Made by a program: the position numbers and the translations under genes. The notes beneath the pieces were generated by a model. It was not told where the DNA came from, made no database searches, and was given only the letters and a program-made list of their open reading frames with translations. Below, one piece after another: positions 207-47,131 of a stretch of DNA of 50,185 nt (position 1 is the first letter of the stretch; every line of letters begins with the position of its first letter). Source of the stretch: Actinomycetes bacterium (GTDB lineage: Bacteria > Actinomycetota > Acidimicrobiia > Acidimicrobiales > GCA-2861595); contig JAHFUS010000027.1 in the NCBI GenBank assembly GCA_023264975.1, positions 1 to 50,185 on the forward strand. The letters are read 5' to 3'.

Positions 207-280
207 TAGCGGCGGTCGGACTCGAACCGACGACAACACGATTATGAGCCGTGTGCTCTGACCAACTGAGCTACGCCGCC
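207..280 (-). tRNA. tRNA-Met (anticodon CAT)
   Basis: A 74-base cloverleaf on the minus strand. The acceptor stem is GGCGGCG with CGCCGCT (one G-U pair), the D arm GCTC/GAGC, the anticodon stem CACGG/TCGTG around loop CTCATAA, and the T arm GTCGG/CCGAC around TTCGAGT. The discriminator base is A and CCA is not encoded. The anticodon is CAT. It has normal Watson-Crick pairing near the acceptor end and not the unpaired first position of initiator tRNA, so elongator Met is favoured; a lysidine-modified Ile tRNA cannot be excluded from sequence alone. Confidence 0.93.
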
Positions 281-1126: not shown

Positions 1127-1915
1127 CTAGGCGGCGTGCGCGGCGTCGGCCGTGAGGAGCGCCATGAGGCGCTCCTGGGTGGAGCGGAAGGCCGGGTCGT
1201 CGACGATCGTCACCCGGTCGCGCGGTCGGGCGATCGGGATGCGGAGGGTCTCCACCACCGAGGGCGACGGCGGGTTGGCCATAACCACGATGCGGTCCGC
1301 CAGCAGCACGGCCTCGTCGATGCCGTGGGTCACCATGAGCACGGTCTCGGTCTCGGACTCGTGGGCCCACAGCTCCACCAGTTGCTGCTGGAGGCGGGCC
1401 CGGGTGAGGGCGTCAAGGGCACCGAAGGGCTCGTCGAGCAGCAGGAGCCGGGGCCTGACTGCGAAGGCGCGGGCCACGGCCGTGCGCTGCGCCATGCCGC
1501 CCGAAATCTGGGCCGGCCGCTTGTCGCGGTGCTCCCACAGGCCGACGGCGGTGAGGTAGCGCTCGACGATCTCGTCGGTGCGCCCCTTGGGCCGGTCGGG
1601 GCGGGCCGCCCTGGCCGCCTCCCGCACGTTGGCCAGCAGGCTGAGGCGGGGCAGCAACGAGTAGTTCTGGAACACCATGGCCCGGTCGGGGCCCGGACCG
1701 TCGATCACCTTGGCGTCGAGGAGGATCCGCCCCGCGTCCGGCTGCTGGAGTCCGGCGACCAGGTTCAACAGGGTCGACTTCCCGCACCCCGAGTGGCCGA
1801 TGAGCGAGACGAACTCGCCCTGCTCGACCGTGAGGTCGACGCCTCGCAGGACCTCCTGGTACGGGCCCTTCTTGCGCTGGAAGCCTTTGCGCAGCCCTTC
1901 TATGACCAACGTCAT
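1127..1915 (-). CDS. nrtD: ABC transporter ATPase, nitrate/sulfonate/taurine type
   Basis: The 262-residue ATPase that powers the importer encoded with the two genes upstream. Walker A GHSGCGKS is at residues 40-47, the Q-loop Gln at 83, the signature ISGGMAQR at 137-144, Walker B LLLLDEP at 157-163 and the H-loop His at 197. The fold and the DRAMVFQ and DEPFGALDALTR stretches are typical of the NrtD/SsuB/TauB group. The signature reads ISGGMAQR rather than the usual LSGGMxQR, a mild variation. The ATG at 1915 overlaps (ATGA) the stop of a 25-codon frame that fills the gap to the permease gene. Nitrate specificity is inferred from the binding protein; bicarbonate or sulfonate are alternatives. 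Confidence 0.9.
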   Translation of the reverse strand: MTLVIEGLRKGFQRKKGPYQEVLRGVDLTVEQGEFVSLIGHSGCGKSTLLNLVAGLQQPDAGRILLDAKVIDGPGPDRAMVFQNYSLLPRLSLLANVREAARAARPDRPKGRTDEIVERYLTAVGLWEHRDKRPAQISGGMAQRTAVARAFAVRPRLLLLDEPFGALDALTRARLQQQLVELWAHESETETVLMVTHGIDEAVLLADRIVVMANPPSPSVVETLRIPIARPRDRVTIVDDPAFRSTQERLMALLTADAAHAA

Positions 1916-1989
1916 CCCGGGCCGCCAATTCGCATGGAACGTCCTCTTGGGCCGCCAATTCGCATGGAACGTCCTCCCGGGCCGTTCAT
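1912..1989 (-). CDS. Junction mini-ORF with decapeptide repeat (nrtB-nrtD)
   Basis: A 25-residue frame exactly bridging permease and ATPase. Its ATG overlaps the permease stop (ATGA) and its TGA overlaps the ATPase start (ATGA). It begins MNGPGGRS and then contains two near-identical MRIGGPxGRS units, the last truncated to MRIGGPG. Each repeat holds a strong ribosome-binding sequence (GGGAGG or AGAGG) seven to eight bases before an ATG, so the region offers repeated initiation sites. Whether the peptide itself matters or only passage or re-initiation of ribosomes is unknown. Its first 27 bases are related to the repeated elements at 31257-31396 and 46991-47131. It may be no protein gene at all; confidence refers to translation being likely. 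Confidence 0.45.
   Translation of the reverse strand: MNGPGGRSMRIGGPRGRSMRIGGPG
1917..1976 (-). repeat. Tandem 30-bp direct repeat, two copies
   Basis: Two adjacent 30-base units (1917-1946 and 1947-1976) differ at only two bases, and a third partial copy of the outer edge continues to about 1983. The period is a multiple of three, so the reading frame of the mini-ORF is kept. The repeat carries a Shine-Dalgarno and ATG, so it duplicates a translation-initiation site between two transporter genes. Confidence 0.9.
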
Positions 1990-4809: not shown

Positions 4810-4894
4810 TGGTGGACCGGGGAGGATTTGAACCTCCGTAGGCTGTGCCGGCAGATTTACAGTCTGCTCCCTTTGGCCGCTCGGGCACCGATCC
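4810..4894 (-). tRNA. tRNA-Tyr (anticodon GTA)
   Basis: An 85-base class II tRNA with a long variable arm on the minus strand. Acceptor GGATCGG pairs with CCGGTCC (one G-U), the anticodon loop TGTAAAT gives anticodon GTA, and the T arm is GGAGG/CCTCC around TTCAAAT. The discriminator is A and the CCA end is encoded (4810-4812), unlike the other two tRNAs in this window. Confidence 0.95.
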
Positions 4895-17661: not shown

Positions 17662-18156
17662 TCAGTCCCTCCGGGCGATCACGACGGCGCCGATGAGGGC
17701 AGCCAGCAGGAGGATGGAGATGACCTCGAAGGGGATCACGTAGTCCTGGAATATCGAGTTGCCGACGTCGGCCGACTTCTGGATGACGTTGTCGCTTGCC
17801 AGCTTGGTGGACCCGTAGGCGTCGTTGAGCACGGCGCCGAGGACTCCGAAGAGGAACAGGGAGACCACCAGGGCCAGGCCCCGCTGGTTGTTGTCCAGGT
17901 CGCTGGTGATACCGATGGGCGCACGCGTGAGCATGATGCCGAAGAGGAAGAGCACGACGATGGCGCCGATGTAGACGAGCACCTGCACGACAGCGGTGAA
18001 CTCGGCGGCGAGGAGGATGTAGAGGGCGGCCACGCCGGCCAGCACGACCACCAGGTAGAGGGCGGCGTGCACGATGTTCTTGGTGGTGACGACCCGGAGG
18101 GCGGCCGCCGCCATGGCGAGCGCGATCGCTCCGAAGATGACATTCTGGGCGAGCAT
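17662..18156 (-). CDS. nuoJ: NADH-quinone oxidoreductase subunit J (operon 1)
   Basis: A 164-residue membrane subunit. VTTKNIVHAALYLVVVLAGV, YILLAAEFTAVVQVLVYIGA and IVVLFLFGIMLTRAP are typical NuoJ helices, including the pi-bulge helix 3 that moves during coupling. The frame stays open upstream inside nuoI, but ATG 18156 gives the correct N terminus (MLAQNVIFG) and lies two bases after the nuoI stop. It is shorter than the second NuoJ because it lacks a C-terminal extension. Confidence 0.95.
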   Translation of the reverse strand: MLAQNVIFGAIALAMAAAALRVVTTKNIVHAALYLVVVLAGVAALYILLAAEFTAVVQVLVYIGAIVVLFLFGIMLTRAPIGITSDLDNNQRGLALVVSLFLFGVLGAVLNDAYGSTKLASDNVIQKSADVGNSIFQDYVIPFEVISILLLAALIGAVVIARRD

Positions 18157-30637: not shown

Positions 30638-31260
30638 GGGGTGTTCCCCTCGGCCGTCGCCGCCACGGCGGTCACCGGCGCGACGGGCGGCTCGTCGTCG
30701 TCTGCCGTCTCCTCCGGCGGCGGCTTGCGCACGAGGGTGACGGCCCCGACGACGGCGATCACGAGCAGGACCGACGTGATCTCGAAGGCGAACAGGTAGC
30801 GGGTGAAGATGCTCTCGGCCAGTTTCTCCACGTTGGGCAGGTCGCCGTCAGCCGGCCCGCCGAGCGACGGCGCTCCGGTGGCCCAGTCGGTGCCGCGTGA
30901 CAGGAGCAGGATCTCGGCCAGGGCGATGATGCCGAGGAGCACGGCGATGGGGCGCTGGCCCCGGAGCGGTTCCTGGCGGATGTCCTCGGACCGGTCGACG
31001 CCGATGAGCATGATCACGAAGAGGAACAGCACGACGATGGCGCCGGCGTAGACGATCACCTGGACGGCGGCCAGGAAGTGGGCCTCCTGGGCCACGAACA
31101 GGATGGCCACGCCGAACAGGGTGAGCACGAGGCAGAGCGCGGCGTGGACCGGGTTGCGCGAGATCACCACGCCGATGGCCCCGGACAGGATGATGGCGGC
31201 GGCGGCCACGAACACCCCGGCATCGACCTTGGTGGCGGCGGCCAGAAGCACGGCGGTCAC
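30634..31260 (-). CDS. nuoJ: NADH-quinone oxidoreductase subunit J (operon 2)
   Basis: A 208-residue membrane subunit. [40 protein letters not shown] and [14 protein letters not shown] are the family helices. The last 40 residues are an acidic, Pro/Ala-rich cytoplasmic tail not found in the operon 1 protein. The GTG at 31260 overlaps (GTGA) the stop of the junction mini-ORF. There is no independent Shine-Dalgarno close by, so initiation probably depends on ribosomes arriving from the mini-ORF. Confidence 0.94.
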
Positions 31261-31328
31261 CGGCCCGCCGTCACTTCGTGACGTCGCACCGGCGAGTTGC
31301 TGATGGACCGACCTCCCGGGCCGGTCAC
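31257..31328 (-). CDS. Junction mini-ORF, copy next to nuoJ2
   Basis: A 23-codon frame starting GTG (overlapping the stop of the preceding copy, GTGA) and ending TGA (overlapping the nuoJ start, GTGA). It reads VTGPGGRS, then [15 protein letters not shown]. Its DNA is identical to that of the neighbouring copy. GGGAGG inside it could act as a Shine-Dalgarno. The related frame at 46991 encodes the same VTGxGGRS start. Translation is suggested by the double overlap but unproven; its role may lie in the RNA. Confidence 0.45.
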   Translation of the reverse strand: MTGPGGRSISNSPVRRHEVTAGR

Positions 31329-31396
31329 CGGCCCGCCGTCACTTCGTGACGTCGCACCGGCGAGTTGCTGATGGACCGACCTCCCGGGCCGGTCAC
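31261..31396 (-). repeat. Perfect 68-bp tandem repeat at the nuoI2-nuoJ2 junction
   Basis: 31261-31328 and 31329-31396 are identical over all 68 bases. Each unit contains two potential RNA hairpins: GACCGGCC with GGTCGGTC around CGGGA, and CGTCAC with GTGACG around GAA. Perfect identity implies a recent duplication or gene-conversion upkeep. The period is not a multiple of three, yet the frame chain is kept because each unit ends in an overlapping stop-start. Confidence 0.97.
31325..31396 (-). CDS. Junction mini-ORF, copy next to nuoI2
   Basis: The first of two identical 23-codon frames. Its GTG overlaps the nuoI stop (GTGA) and its TGA overlaps the GTG of the second copy. The chain nuoI, copy, copy, nuoJ is therefore linked by three successive GTGA overlaps, so one ribosome could run or re-initiate through all four frames. 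The last codons (AGR, stop) equal the last codons of nuoI itself, so the repeat boundary includes the junction. Confidence 0.45.
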
Positions 31397-32028
31397 CGGC
31401 CCGCATCCTCGTTCGCGCCCTCGGGGGCAGGGGCCGGTGCGCCGCCGGGCTGAGCGGGCTCCGGGGCCCGCACGCCGTAGCCCAGCTCGCCCGACCACTG
31501 CACACGGCCTTCGAAACGGGCGTTGCCGGACGGCGCGGTGGCCCGCACCCAGGCCGACGTATGGGTGTCGTCGCCCTCGCGCCAGTCCTCCCAGGGCAGC
31601 TTCTGGGGCCGGCCGTCGTCGTCGACGACCAGCTCGGCCTTGGTGTAGATGGCATCCTTTCGGTCGGTAAAGGAGAACTCGAACAGCTTCGACTCGGTGA
31701 TGGCCTCGGTGGGACACGCCTCCACGCACAGGTCGCAGTGGATGCAGCGCAGGTAATTGATCTCGTAGACGAAACCGAACCGCTCCCCCGGCGACACGGG
31801 TGCGTCGGGCAGGTTGTCGGCTCCGCGCACGTAAATGCACCGCGCCGGGCAGACGCCCGCGCACAGCTCGCAGCCGATGCACTTCTCCATGCCGTCCTCG
31901 TACCGGTTGAGCACGTGGCGGCCGTGGAAGCGCTCGGGCTTGGGGCGCTTCTCGTTCGGGTACTCGACTGTGACCCGCTTCTCGAACATGGTCCTGAAGG
32001 TGATCTTGAAGCCGTCGAAGTAACCCAT
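31393..32028 (-). CDS. nuoI: NADH-quinone oxidoreductase subunit I (operon 2)
   Basis: A 211-residue 8Fe ferredoxin-like subunit. The clusters N6a/N6b are bound by C50/C53/C56/C60 ([12 protein letters not shown]) and C95/C98/C101/C105 ([12 protein letters not shown]). The C-terminal 90 residues (after about 120) are an extension ending in a Pro/Ala/Gly-rich tail, longer than in operon 1. The start is ATG at 32028, abutting the nuoH stop. Its own stop overlaps the first junction mini-ORF. Confidence 0.96.
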
Positions 32029-44130: not shown

Positions 44131-44377
44131 GAGTGCCTCCGGTGCGGTTCAGGGAAGCGAGGTACGGGAACGAGCGGCGTGTACGTGCGCCCGGGCGGCC
44201 GGCCACCGGACGCCGCAGGCGGCCCCCATGGCTGGACGCCACCGCCGGCGAACGCGGGCAGCAACGAGCAGTCAGCGTGGTGGTCGGCCGGCTCCGCCGG
44301 TCGTCCACCACTCCGTCAAACCCGCCCGAACGGAGCGAGCGAGTGACGGCGGAACTCATAGTGACGGCGGAACTCAT
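44123..44377 (-). CDS. Junction ORF between cytochrome b and subunit IV genes
   Basis: An 84-residue frame fills the complete gap between the two cytochrome b halves. Its ATG overlaps the cytochrome b stop (ATGA) and its stop overlaps the start of the next gene by eight bases. It begins with an exact tandem duplication, MSSAVT twice, then a basic Arg/Ser/Gly-rich sequence with no domain and no membrane helix (for example RPVAGRPGARTRRSFPYLAS). The composition looks like translated GC-rich spacer, so a functional protein is doubtful. The overlaps at both ends suggest ribosomes pass through. A good GGAGG Shine-Dalgarno also precedes the downstream ATG. Confidence 0.35.
   Translation of the reverse strand: MSSAVTMSSAVTRSLRSGGFDGVVDDRRSRPTTTLTARCCPRSPAVASSHGGRLRRPVAGRPGARTRRSFPYLASLNRTGGTHG
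44342..44377 (-). repeat. Tandem 18-bp repeat at the cytochrome b stop
   Basis: ATGAGTTCCGCCGTCACT occurs twice in a row on the minus strand (44360-44377 and 44342-44359), identical in all 18 bases. Each copy starts with the ATGA overlap. The start of the diheme cytochrome c gene (ATGAGCTCCTCCGTCAC) matches it in 15 of 17 bases. Confidence 0.95.
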
Positions 44378-45180
44378 AGCGGCCCAGATATTCCGCCGTC
44401 TTTCCGGACACGCCAGAAGTGGACAGCCATGAAGATGACGATGACGAACGGCAGCATCAGCACATGGAGCACGTACCATCGCAGGAGGGTGTCGGTGCCG
44501 ATCTCGGCCCCGCCCAGGAGCACGAAGCGGACCTGGCTCCCGAACACGGGCGTGTAGCCCATCATGTTCGTGCCCACGGTGACCGCCCACAGGGCCAGCT
44601 GGTCCCAGGGCAGCAGGTAGCCGGTGAACGACAGCAGCAGCGTGAGCATGAGCAGCATCACGCCGATGACCCAGTTGAACTCCCGGGGCGGCTTGTAGGC
44701 ACCGTGGTAGAAGACGCGGGCCATGTGGAGGAACACCGACAACACCATGAGGTGGGCGGCCCAACGGTGCATGTTGCGCACGAGGAGGCCGAAGGCAACC
44801 GACGTGTGCAGCGTGGCGATGTCGTTCCACGCGTTGGCGGCAGTAGGCCTGTAGAAGAACATCAAGAAGATGCCCGTGACCGTGAGCATGATGAACAAGA
44901 AGAACGACAGGCCGCCGAGGCAGAGCGTGTAGCTCACCTTCACGGCGTGGCGCTTCACCTTCACCGGGTGCAGGTGGTAGAGCACCGAGTTCATGATCAC
45001 GTAGGACCGGTTCCTCGGGCTGTCGGTGTAGCCCTTGCGGAAGATCGACCCCGGCCGGAACACCGACGCCCAGAACTGCGAGCCCTGGACCTTCTCGACC
45101 CGCTCGCTCAACTTCCTCGAGAACTCGCCCTTTGCGACGAGACGCTTCGCCACGACCCGCCCTACCGCAACCCTGCGCAA
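44374..45180 (-). CDS. qcrB: Cytochrome b, N-terminal b6-like half, with heme ci cysteine
   Basis: 268 residues, four-helix cytochrome b6 type. The bis-His heme ligands are H138/H152 and H239/H254 with the exact 14 and 15 spacing of cytochrome b6. C87 in YTLCLGG is the cysteine that in cytochrome b6 and Bacillus QcrB binds an extra heme (ci) covalently. GYLLPWDQLALWAV and the terminal GGISGPL are b6 hallmarks. The start is TTG at 45180 or, equally possible, GTG at 45153. This is the quinol-oxidising core together with subunit IV and the Rieske protein. The stop overlaps the ATG of the junction ORF. Confidence 0.95.
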   Translation of the reverse strand: MRRVAVGRVVAKRLVAKGEFSRKLSERVEKVQGSQFWASVFRPGSIFRKGYTDSPRNRSYVIMNSVLYHLHPVKVKRHAVKVSYTLCLGGLSFFLFIMLTVTGIFLMFFYRPTAANAWNDIATLHTSVAFGLLVRNMHRWAAHLMVLSVFLHMARVFYHGAYKPPREFNWVIGVMLLMLTLLLSFTGYLLPWDQLALWAVTVGTNMMGYTPVFGSQVRFVLLGGAEIGTDTLLRWYVLHVLMLPFVIVIFMAVHFWRVRKDGGISGPL

Positions 45181-46990: not shown

Positions 46991-47128
46991 GTGACCGGCC
47001 GGGGAGGACGGTCCCAGCAGCAGCTCACTGCTGAGCCAGCACGAAGTGGTGGATCTGCAGTGACCGGCCCGGGAGGGCGGTCCCTGTACGAAGTGCAGGC
47101 GCGCCATGATGCGGTGATGGAGCGCCAA
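46991..47128 (+). repeat. Diverged tandem pair of the GPGGRS element
   Basis: Unit 1 starts at 46991 and unit 2 at 47060, period 69. Both open with GTGACCGGCC and continue GGGGAGGACGGTCC or CGGGAGGGCGGTCC. Both contain a second hairpin with apex ACGAAGT: CCAGCAC/GTGGTGG in unit 1 and CCTGTAC/GTGCAGG in unit 2. Unit 1 also has a middle hairpin CAGCAG/CTGCTG, which unit 2 lacks. Confidence 0.8.
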
Positions 47129-47131
47129 TGA
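46991..47131 (+). CDS. Junction mini-ORF upstream of menJ-like gene
   Basis: A 46-residue frame starting GTG six bases after the cytochrome c stop and ending in a TGA that overlaps the ATG of the reductase gene (ATGA). It contains two related units, VTGRGGRS at the start and VTGPGGRS 23 codons later. Between and after them are QQQLTAEPARSGGSA and LYEVQARHDAVMERQ. The first unit aligns along its full 69 bases with the repeat at 31257-31396, with one indel. No domain is recognised. Confidence 0.45.
   Translation: MTGRGGRSQQQLTAEPARSGGSAVTGPGGRSLYEVQARHDAVMERQ

What the first reader, a model, noticed from the sequence alone, without database searches (positions are those of the whole stretch)
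31257..31396. Tandem 68-bp element placed exactly in a GTGA stop-start junction of the complex I operon
Between nuoI2 and nuoJ2 lie two identical 68-base units. Each is a complete 23-codon frame ([23 protein letters not shown]), starting in a GTGA overlap and ending in one, so nuoI, unit, unit and nuoJ form an unbroken chain of coupled frames. The unit period is not a multiple of three, so the frame is not kept by simple in-frame repetition; it is kept because each unit carries its own stop-start overlap. Related units occur at two other operon junctions in the window, always in sense orientation. I know of no described element with this behaviour. The nearest precedent is Rickettsia palindromic elements, which insert in frame within genes rather than at junctions.
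Basis: partly seen in the sequence, partly recalled or inferred. Interest (0 to 1): 0.85.

Follow-up and report, generated by a model that had tools for sequence, protein, structure and literature searches.

The report
Mobile repeats at gene stop-start overlaps
A short mobile DNA repeat found in a few Acidimicrobiia genomes sits exactly in the overlap between one gene's stop and the next gene's start and carries a tiny reading frame that should keep the two genes linked, much like the long-known MIRU repeats of mycobacteria but as a separate, hairpin-bearing family.

Summary
Two identical 68-bp units sit in the nuoI-nuoJ GTGA overlap, each a 23-codon frame with stop-start overlaps at both ends. 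The same genome holds at least 47 copies in 40 arrays; six other genomes hold 1 to 40 (the four named ones are Acidimicrobiia). In a held-out set, 41 of 44 arrays begin exactly at the stop of a long frame and 31 of 44 also lead straight into a long coupled frame, against 7% of ordinary RTGA sites. Relatives show empty NTGA junctions at rph, frr and qcrA-qcrB, and only 6 of 94 arrays were found at shared junctions, so the unit has moved. Unit lengths vary but 17 of 19 tandem periods keep the frame; a 3' hairpin containing the downstream start codon covaries; the peptide is not conserved there. This family differs in having dyad symmetry and in lineage. Coupled translation is inferred; the mobilising enzyme is unknown (no Y1 transposase match in seven carriers). 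A new variant of a known kind.

The parts
31393..32028 (-). nuoI, upstream gene, stop TGA inside the first GTGA
   Evidence: ORF list; 4Fe-4S families in Pfam
31325..31396 (-). unit 1, GTGA to GTGA, 23-codon frame
31257..31328 (-). unit 2, identical to unit 1, ends in the nuoJ GTGA start
31374..31394 (-). hairpin 1 of unit 1 (GACCG with CGGTC; GGGAGG between the arms)
   Evidence: predicted fold, consensus
31325..31363 (-). hairpin 2 of unit 1; its 3' arm contains the stop/start GTGA
   Evidence: predicted fold, covariation in the family
31306..31326 (-). hairpin 1 of unit 2
31257..31295 (-). hairpin 2 of unit 2; its 3' arm contains the nuoJ start codon
30634..31260 (-). nuoJ, downstream gene, GTG start inside the last GTGA
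   Evidence: Oxidored_q3
46991..47059 (+). unit of 69 nt at a second junction; its frame runs on into the next unit
47060..47131 (+). second unit there, ends in the ATGA start of an FAD oxidoreductase gene
1912..1989 (-). diverged junction element without hairpin 2: 30-bp tandem of the 5' half, ATGA to ATGA, 74 nt, open 25-codon frame, ABC permease to ABC ATPase
   Evidence: (E 0.05)

Best explanation
The unit is a small mobile repeat, without a gene for its own movement, that works like a MIRU. SHOWN: it lies immediately 3' of an NTGA overlap in most copies; it usually ends in a GTGA or ATGA of its own; its length mostly keeps one reading frame from overlap to overlap; its second half is a covarying hairpin that contains the downstream start codon; relatives have the bare NTGA junction; it is found at mostly different junctions in different genomes; it also occurs in tandem. 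INFERRED: a ribosome leaving the upstream gene stops at the first TGA, restarts on the overlapping NTG, reads the mini-frame (17 to 23 codons in most), opens hairpin 2, stops at the second TGA and restarts on the downstream gene. The element would thus be tolerated inside operons, also of essential genes, because it replaces one coupled junction by two. The frame and the hairpin are probably what is selected, not the peptide. Tandem copies probably arise by slippage. How the unit moves is unknown; the ends suggest insertion just behind a native NTGA, with the 3' GTGA brought in by the element rather than copied from the target.
For: Copies at E<=0.01: 47 own, and 40, 29, 23, 7, 3, 1 in six others. 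Own: 5' NTGA in 41 of 47, 3' NTGA in 36 of 47; of the 32 with both, 26 have length 2 mod 3. By arrays, 29 of 40 have an NTGA-ended upstream frame of >=100 codons, 24 of 40 an NTGA-started downstream one, 19 of 40 both, against 39 of 742 RTGA sites of the window. Held-out set, 63 units in 44 arrays: upstream >=100 codons in 41 of 44, against 19.6% of 2822 RTGA sites in the same loci; both sides directly in 31 of 44, against 207 of 2822 (7.3%), plus 3 fused in frame and 4 reached through one more short frame. Tandem periods there: 68 x6, 50 x6, 65 x4, 59, 49, 69, so 17 of 19 are 2 mod 3. Flanks are genes: Pfam families in 20 of 20 downstream and 16 of 20 upstream proteins tried, e.g. nuoI-nuoJ, qcrA-qcrB, ruvC-ruvA, amino-acid kinase-frr, ABC ATPase-permease. 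Covariation on 52 distinct units: 85.8% of cells paired (shuffles 78.5), score 0.211 (shuffles 0.107; slid partners at most 0.080), 11 of 16 pairs of hairpin 2 changed on both sides. Bare junctions: rph in G138; frr in G138, G395, G398 (GTGA) and G396 (CTGA); qcrA-qcrB bare in G138, filled in G395 and own. 6 of 94 arrays share both flanking genes with an occupied array elsewhere.
Against: No expression data; coupling is inference. 21 of 40 own arrays fail the strict two-sided test: 6 arrays lack a 5' NTGA and 9 a 3' NTGA; some sit at gene ends with no long coupled frame behind them (C14:3595, C14:25545, C34:33724, C34:78450), C93:6691 shows no long flanking frame, and the window's own 46991 array is not overlapped with its upstream gene. 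The control rates include genuine junctions, and frames of >=100 codons are not gene calls. Absence of internal stops is not significant (1 of 44 distinct 68-nt units, 7% expected), so the frame argument rests on length; the tandem periods are not all independent. rph and qcrA-qcrB are occupied in own and G395 but bare in G138, the congener, so some bare sites may be precise losses or the same sites were hit twice. Own qcrB differs from G138 by 9 further bases at the junction. No mobilising gene was found. For three genomes the sharing count used exact-core copies only, so it understates sharing.
Confidence: 0.8

Rival explanations
1. A REP/RAYT-like or IS200/IS605-like palindromic element, moved as a single strand by a Y1 (HUH) transposase that cuts at GTGA; the junction preference would be the enzyme's tetranucleotide target plus purifying selection.
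For: Two hairpins with a conserved tetranucleotide at their foot and one orientation relative to it. Of 22 arrays with 5' ATGA, 18 have 3' GTGA, so no plain 4-bp duplication.
Against: No Y1_Tnp (PF01797) match at E<=0.001 in the own genome or in six other carriers, while the same search rings in 5 of 14 control genomes. A transposase outside that model, or lost after spreading, is not excluded.
Confidence: 0.12
2. Not mobile: an old cis-acting mRNA element of certain operons, inherited vertically and lost in places, with tandem copies from slippage.
For: Covarying hairpin; junctions occupied in own and G395 but bare in G138; dispersed own copies at most 89% identical over 72 nt, so no recent spread in this genome.
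Against: Only 6 of 94 arrays at shared junctions (an underestimate); unrelated genes served; bare junctions that match base for base; no Rfam match.
Confidence: 0.08
3. A true MIRU, homologous to the mycobacterial ones, diverged beyond recognition.
For: Same size class, sense orientation, junction seat, internal ORF, tandem arrays (MIRU; here).
Against: Exact core found only in four Acidimicrobiia genomes among 84,980 species; model R1 matched only the own genome among 396 drawn from the phylum, with strict filters; dyad symmetry here, stated absent in MIRUs. No MIRU sequence was at hand to compare.
Confidence: 0.1
4. Chance tandem repeat in one operon.
For: Tandem Repeats Finder sees one perfect 2.2-copy array here.
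Against: Forty arrays in this genome and many in others.
Confidence: 0.01

Closest known systems
Mycobacterial interspersed repetitive units (MIRU), e.g. the senX3-regX3 77/53-bp units
   Same: Short dispersed units (40-100 bp, 41 locations in H37Rv; PMC2734929 passage), tandem at some loci, small ORF overlapping both neighbours in the same direction (PMC4473831 passage), described as apparently mobile and coupled with -4 nt spacing (PMC12548453 passage).
   Different: MIRUs are said to lack dyad symmetry, this unit has two hairpins; its exact core was seen only in Acidimicrobiia; frame-keeping tandem periods of 50, 59, 65 and 68.
REP / BIME elements with RAYT transposases
   Same: Short palindromic dispersed repeats with a foot tetranucleotide (recalled).
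   Different: No Y1 transposase match in seven carriers; seated in stop-start overlaps with a kept reading frame.
Rickettsia palindromic elements (RPE)
   Different: RPEs insert in frame within genes (recalled); here the unit is 2 mod 3 and sits between genes, although 69-nt variants read on into the downstream frame.

Membership tests
MIRU | interspersed 40-100 bp direct repeat, tandem at some loci | tested here: met
   47 own copies in 40 arrays, 7 of them with two units
MIRU | small ORF in the direction of the neighbours with ends overlapping theirs | tested here: met
   with exceptions listed in the Against line
MIRU | inserted at a stop-start / start-codon (DTGA) site | tested here: met
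   bare NTGA junctions in relatives; 'DTGA' is recalled from Supply 1997, which is not held
MIRU | no dyad symmetry | tested here: not met
   hairpin 2 with covariation; the feature is from PMC4473831
MIRU | sequence homology to mycobacterial MIRUs | tested here: inconclusive
   exact core only in Acidimicrobiia, R1 matched only own among 396 phylum genomes with strict filters; no MIRU sequence was compared
REP/RAYT | Y1 (HUH) transposase in the genome | tested here: not met
   0 of 7 carriers at E<=0.001
REP/RAYT | palindromic unit | tested here: met
Rickettsia palindromic element | in-frame insertion within genes | tested here: not met
   unit length 2 mod 3 in 32 of 47 own copies, mostly between genes
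Known Rfam RNA family | match at the gathering score in the window, or E<=1 at the unit | tested here: not met
   only three tRNAs in the window, nothing at 31200-31450

The most novel reading that the evidence does not exclude
Acidimicrobiia evolved, independently of mycobacteria, a mobile cassette whose target is the translational junction itself: it lands behind NTGA, brings a hairpin that locks the downstream start codon and a mini-frame whose passage by the ribosome is the key, so that each insertion turns a loose overlap into strictly dependent re-initiation, and a one-base slip converts the cassette into an N-terminal fusion. It would be moved by an enzyme not yet recognised.
Probability: 0.35. 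Interest if true: 0.75.

Novelty: new variant of a known kind. Interest (0 to 1): 0.55.

Why it matters
It gives a second, separately defined family with MIRU-like behaviour, in another class of Actinomycetota, with bare sites in relatives, many different insertion points and length variants. An old proposal (repeats that spread through operons because they preserve translational coupling) becomes testable by comparison: length modulo 3, hairpin integrity and start codon can each be read from natural variants. It also is a warning for gene calling: such units may be annotated as tiny genes or as N-terminal extensions.

Tried and rejected
Loose BLAST of the unit within the window gave mostly noise beyond the three junctions. 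A Shine-Dalgarno-like GGGAGG with an internal ATG at codon 9 was considered: some copies have ATG there, but codon 9 is not kept as a start (A 71%, T 54%, C 62% at its three places in 52 units), while GGGAGG is 94-98% conserved per position; that figure is inflated, since 21 of the 52 units come from a scan that required the exact 5' core. Selection on the peptide was rejected for the 3' half: strongly variable places there include second codon positions, and they pair in hairpin 2. Selection against internal stops: not significant. Plain NTGA target duplication: not supported, since 5' and 3' N are not associated (Fisher p 0.22), although frr has GTGAGCG on both sides and in the bare site. 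An apparent bare site for the G225 array L201 in G395 and G138 was checked and dropped, because the alignments stop short of the junction. G225 L211 against AVDCRST_MAG10 L183 is a base or two off and is not counted. nuoI-nuoJ has bare NTGA overlaps in G138 and G395, but the NuoI end varies in length, so it supports without being exact. My first count of own arrays with long frames on both sides was 23 of 40; it had not required the NTGA itself, and the strict recount is 19 of 40. PMC4255298 matched 'MIRU' only through the name mirum. Searches for the same element in Acidimicrobiia or for mobile coupling repeats showed nothing further in their listings; I claim absence from print for those searches only.

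Full report
OBSERVATION. Between nuoI and nuoJ, minus strand, lie two identical 68-nt units. From GTGA to GTGA they are 31325-31396 and 31257-31328. Each reads GTG + 22 codons + [26 protein letters not shown], with the stop of nuoI in the first overlap and the start of nuoJ in the last. Pfam gives 4Fe-4S families and Oxidored_q3 for the neighbours. Two further junctions in the window hold relatives: 46991-47131 (two units) and 1912-1989 (a derivative that keeps the 5' half in tandem and still runs ATGA to ATGA in 74 nt with an open frame). In the 46991 array the first unit is 69 nt, so both read as one 46-codon frame, and the upstream gene stops at a separate TAG.

COPIES IN THE GENOME. The window is contig 108 of a genome of 3.78 Mb in 139 contigs. 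BLAST with the unit gave 12 places at E<1e-3. A covariance model, R1, from 11 of them gave 63 matches at E<=1; I use the 47 at E<=0.0034 and dropped the 16 weaker ones, several of which are opposite-strand echoes of the palindrome. Twelve of the 47 are the training copies and the identical twin. Only 150 of 8768 candidates were scored, so 47 is a lower bound. They form 40 arrays, 7 with two units.

POSITION. Of the 47, 41 start with NTGA and 36 end with NTGA; 32 have both, and of these 26 are 2 mod 3 in length (23 exactly 68), 3 are 0 and 3 are 1 mod 3. By arrays, 34 of 40 have the 5' NTGA and 31 the 3' NTGA; 29 of 40 have an upstream frame of at least 100 codons ending in that NTGA, 24 a downstream frame of at least 100 codons starting at the last one, and 19 both. 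Ordinary RTGA sites of the window give both in 39 of 742, a control that includes genuine junctions. Many frames are recognisable genes: of 32 downstream and 33 upstream frames of at least 60 codons I gave Pfam 20 and 20, not drawn at random, and 20 of 20 and 16 of 20 matched a family at E<=1e-6. Pairs include amino-acid kinase (pyrH-like)-frr, ruvC-ruvA, qcrA-qcrB, sulfite/nitrite reductase-PAPS reductase, metallo-beta-lactamase-fold protein-RNase PH, ABC ATPase-permease, and RNase P protein followed by a frame that I take by eye for yidD. Against this, 21 of 40 arrays fail the strict two-sided test; four lie at gene ends with no long coupled frame behind them, and one (C93:6691) shows no long frame on either side.

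HELD-OUT GENOMES. An exact core of 22 fixed bases was scanned over one genome each of 84,980 species. All 43 stretches come from four genomes: uncultured Acidimicrobiales AVDCRST_MAG10 and Acidimicrobiia nzgw82, nzgw83 and nzgw84; the tool notes that records of the window's own genome may be left out. nzgw84 is G225 by identical flanks in 7 of 7 loci tried, and G225 is of the same order as the window's genome. The four gave 63 units in 44 arrays. 41 of 44 begin at the stop of a frame of at least 100 codons, against 19.6% of 2822 RTGA sites of the same loci. In 31 of 44 the last unit also leads directly into a frame of at least 100 codons, against 207 of 2822 (7.3%); 3 more are fused in frame and 4 reach such a frame through one further short frame; 6 of 44 fail. 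Copies by R1 at E<=0.01: 40 in G225, 29 in AVDCRST_MAG10, 23 in nzgw82, 7 in G395, 3 in G138, 1 in nzgw83, each with 150 candidates scored. In the own family 3 of 6 genomes have copies, own included. In 395 genomes of the class 3 had hits at E<=0.001 and in 396 of the phylum only the own genome at E<=0.01; there 12 candidates per genome were scored with strict filters, so these are lower bounds.

FRAME. Length changes, the frame mostly does not. Tandem periods, which do not depend on reading a frame, are 68 (6), 50 (6), 65 (4), 59, 49 and 69: 17 of 19 are 2 mod 3, though copies of one array are not independent. Some own units keep 68 nt by compensating indels (C133:5902). Five own units scored as 69 nt, and one in G138, read on in frame into the following frame; at C38:52951 that frame is a 3-hydroxyacyl-CoA dehydrogenase, and at C112 two units read as one N-terminal extension. 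Absence of internal stops is no evidence by itself: 1 of 44 distinct 68-nt units has one, 7% expected. In 52 distinct 68-nt units the 3' half varies also at second codon positions; the 5' third looks nearly invariant, but 21 of the 52 were found by their exact core.

STRUCTURE. Five single units all fold into two hairpins. Hairpin 2 is the last 39 nt and contains the final TGA and the downstream start codon. On 52 distinct units, chosen for length and NTGA ends (and, in the four named genomes, an open frame) but not for pairing, 85.8% of cells pair (shuffles 78.5), the covariation score is 0.211 (shuffles 0.107; slid partners at most 0.080), and 11 of 16 pairs of hairpin 2 change on both sides. 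Hairpin 1 hardly varies and says little. No Rfam family matches.

MOBILITY. At rph the congener G138 reads CCGGT-ATGA-CCGAGCGG where the window's genome reads CCGGT-ATGA-unit-GTGA-CGGAGCGG. At frr G138, G395 and G398 have a bare GTGA overlap and G396 a bare CTGA overlap where the own genome has two units. At qcrA-qcrB G138 is bare, G395 and own are filled; own differs from G138 by nine further bases. Of 80 loci around nuoJ, rph, frr and qcrB from own and relatives, R1 finds units at E<=0.01 only in loci of own and G395. A 47-nt insert with only hairpin 2 sits at rph in G395. Only 6 of 94 arrays share both flanking genes with an occupied array in another genome; for three genomes only exact-core copies were entered, so sharing is understated. 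rph and qcrA-qcrB being occupied in own and G395 but not in G138 means that loss or repeated insertion also occurs. Dispersed own units of 72 nt are at most 89% identical, so spread in this genome is not recent; the nuo duplication is.

ENDS AND MOVER. Of 22 arrays starting ATGA, 18 end GTGA and 4 ATGA. With rph this suggests that the unit inserts behind the native NTGA and brings its own 3' GTGA. Y1_Tnp has no match in the own genome and six other carriers. The mover is unknown.

MECHANISM. The best reading is termination and re-initiation at both overlaps, with the ribosome opening hairpin 2 on the way. The anatomy is shown; the translation events are inferred.

PRECEDENT. MIRUs are described in the same terms: apparently mobile, at start codons, internal ORF coupled at -4 nt (PMC12548453, one passage); small ORFs overlapping their neighbours in the same direction, without dyad symmetry (PMC4473831, passages); 40-100 bp, 41 locations in H37Rv, with rnc-fpg spacers of 1-20 bp in several other mycobacteria where M. 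tuberculosis has 358 (PMC2734929, passages); MIRUs in 5' UTRs of M. bovis (PMC4128351, passages); the senX3-regX3 units (PMC4213456, passages). The founding paper (Supply 1997) is not held; what I say of its DTGA site is recalled. The present family works like a MIRU, fails one stated MIRU feature (no dyad symmetry), and its exact core was seen only in Acidimicrobiia. I therefore do not file it as a MIRU.

Noticed in passing
window 1908-1984 (-): 30-bp tandem of the unit's 5' half (with ATGCGAATTGGC) between ABC permease and ATPase genes; frame and ATGA overlaps kept at 74 nt.
   Followed up: yes
window 44342-44379: Perfect 18-bp tandem (2.1 copies, AGTGACGGCGGAACTCAT) with a TGA in each copy; not otherwise like the unit.
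   Followed up: partly
window 17665-18138 (-): A second NuoJ-like frame, 39% identical to the first, so the window may carry two complex I gene sets.
   Followed up: no
L206, L213, L216 (AVDCRST_MAG10) and L222 (nzgw84): A 50-bp subtype of the unit in tandem, 2 mod 3, with a 17-codon frame.
   Followed up: partly
L135 around 2233-2269 (G395, before rph): A 47-nt insert holding only hairpin 2 at the junction that has a full unit in the window's genome.
   Followed up: partly
L185 at about 1680 (nzgw83): A unit whose frame is open for 826 codons, that is fused to a large downstream frame.
   Followed up: no
G000 contig C112:31322-31459: Two units that read as one N-terminal extension ([11 protein letters not shown]... 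twice) of a downstream frame that looks by eye like a precorrin isomerase.
   Followed up: partly
window 207-280, 310-382, 4813-4894 (-): Three tRNA genes by Rfam.
   Followed up: no
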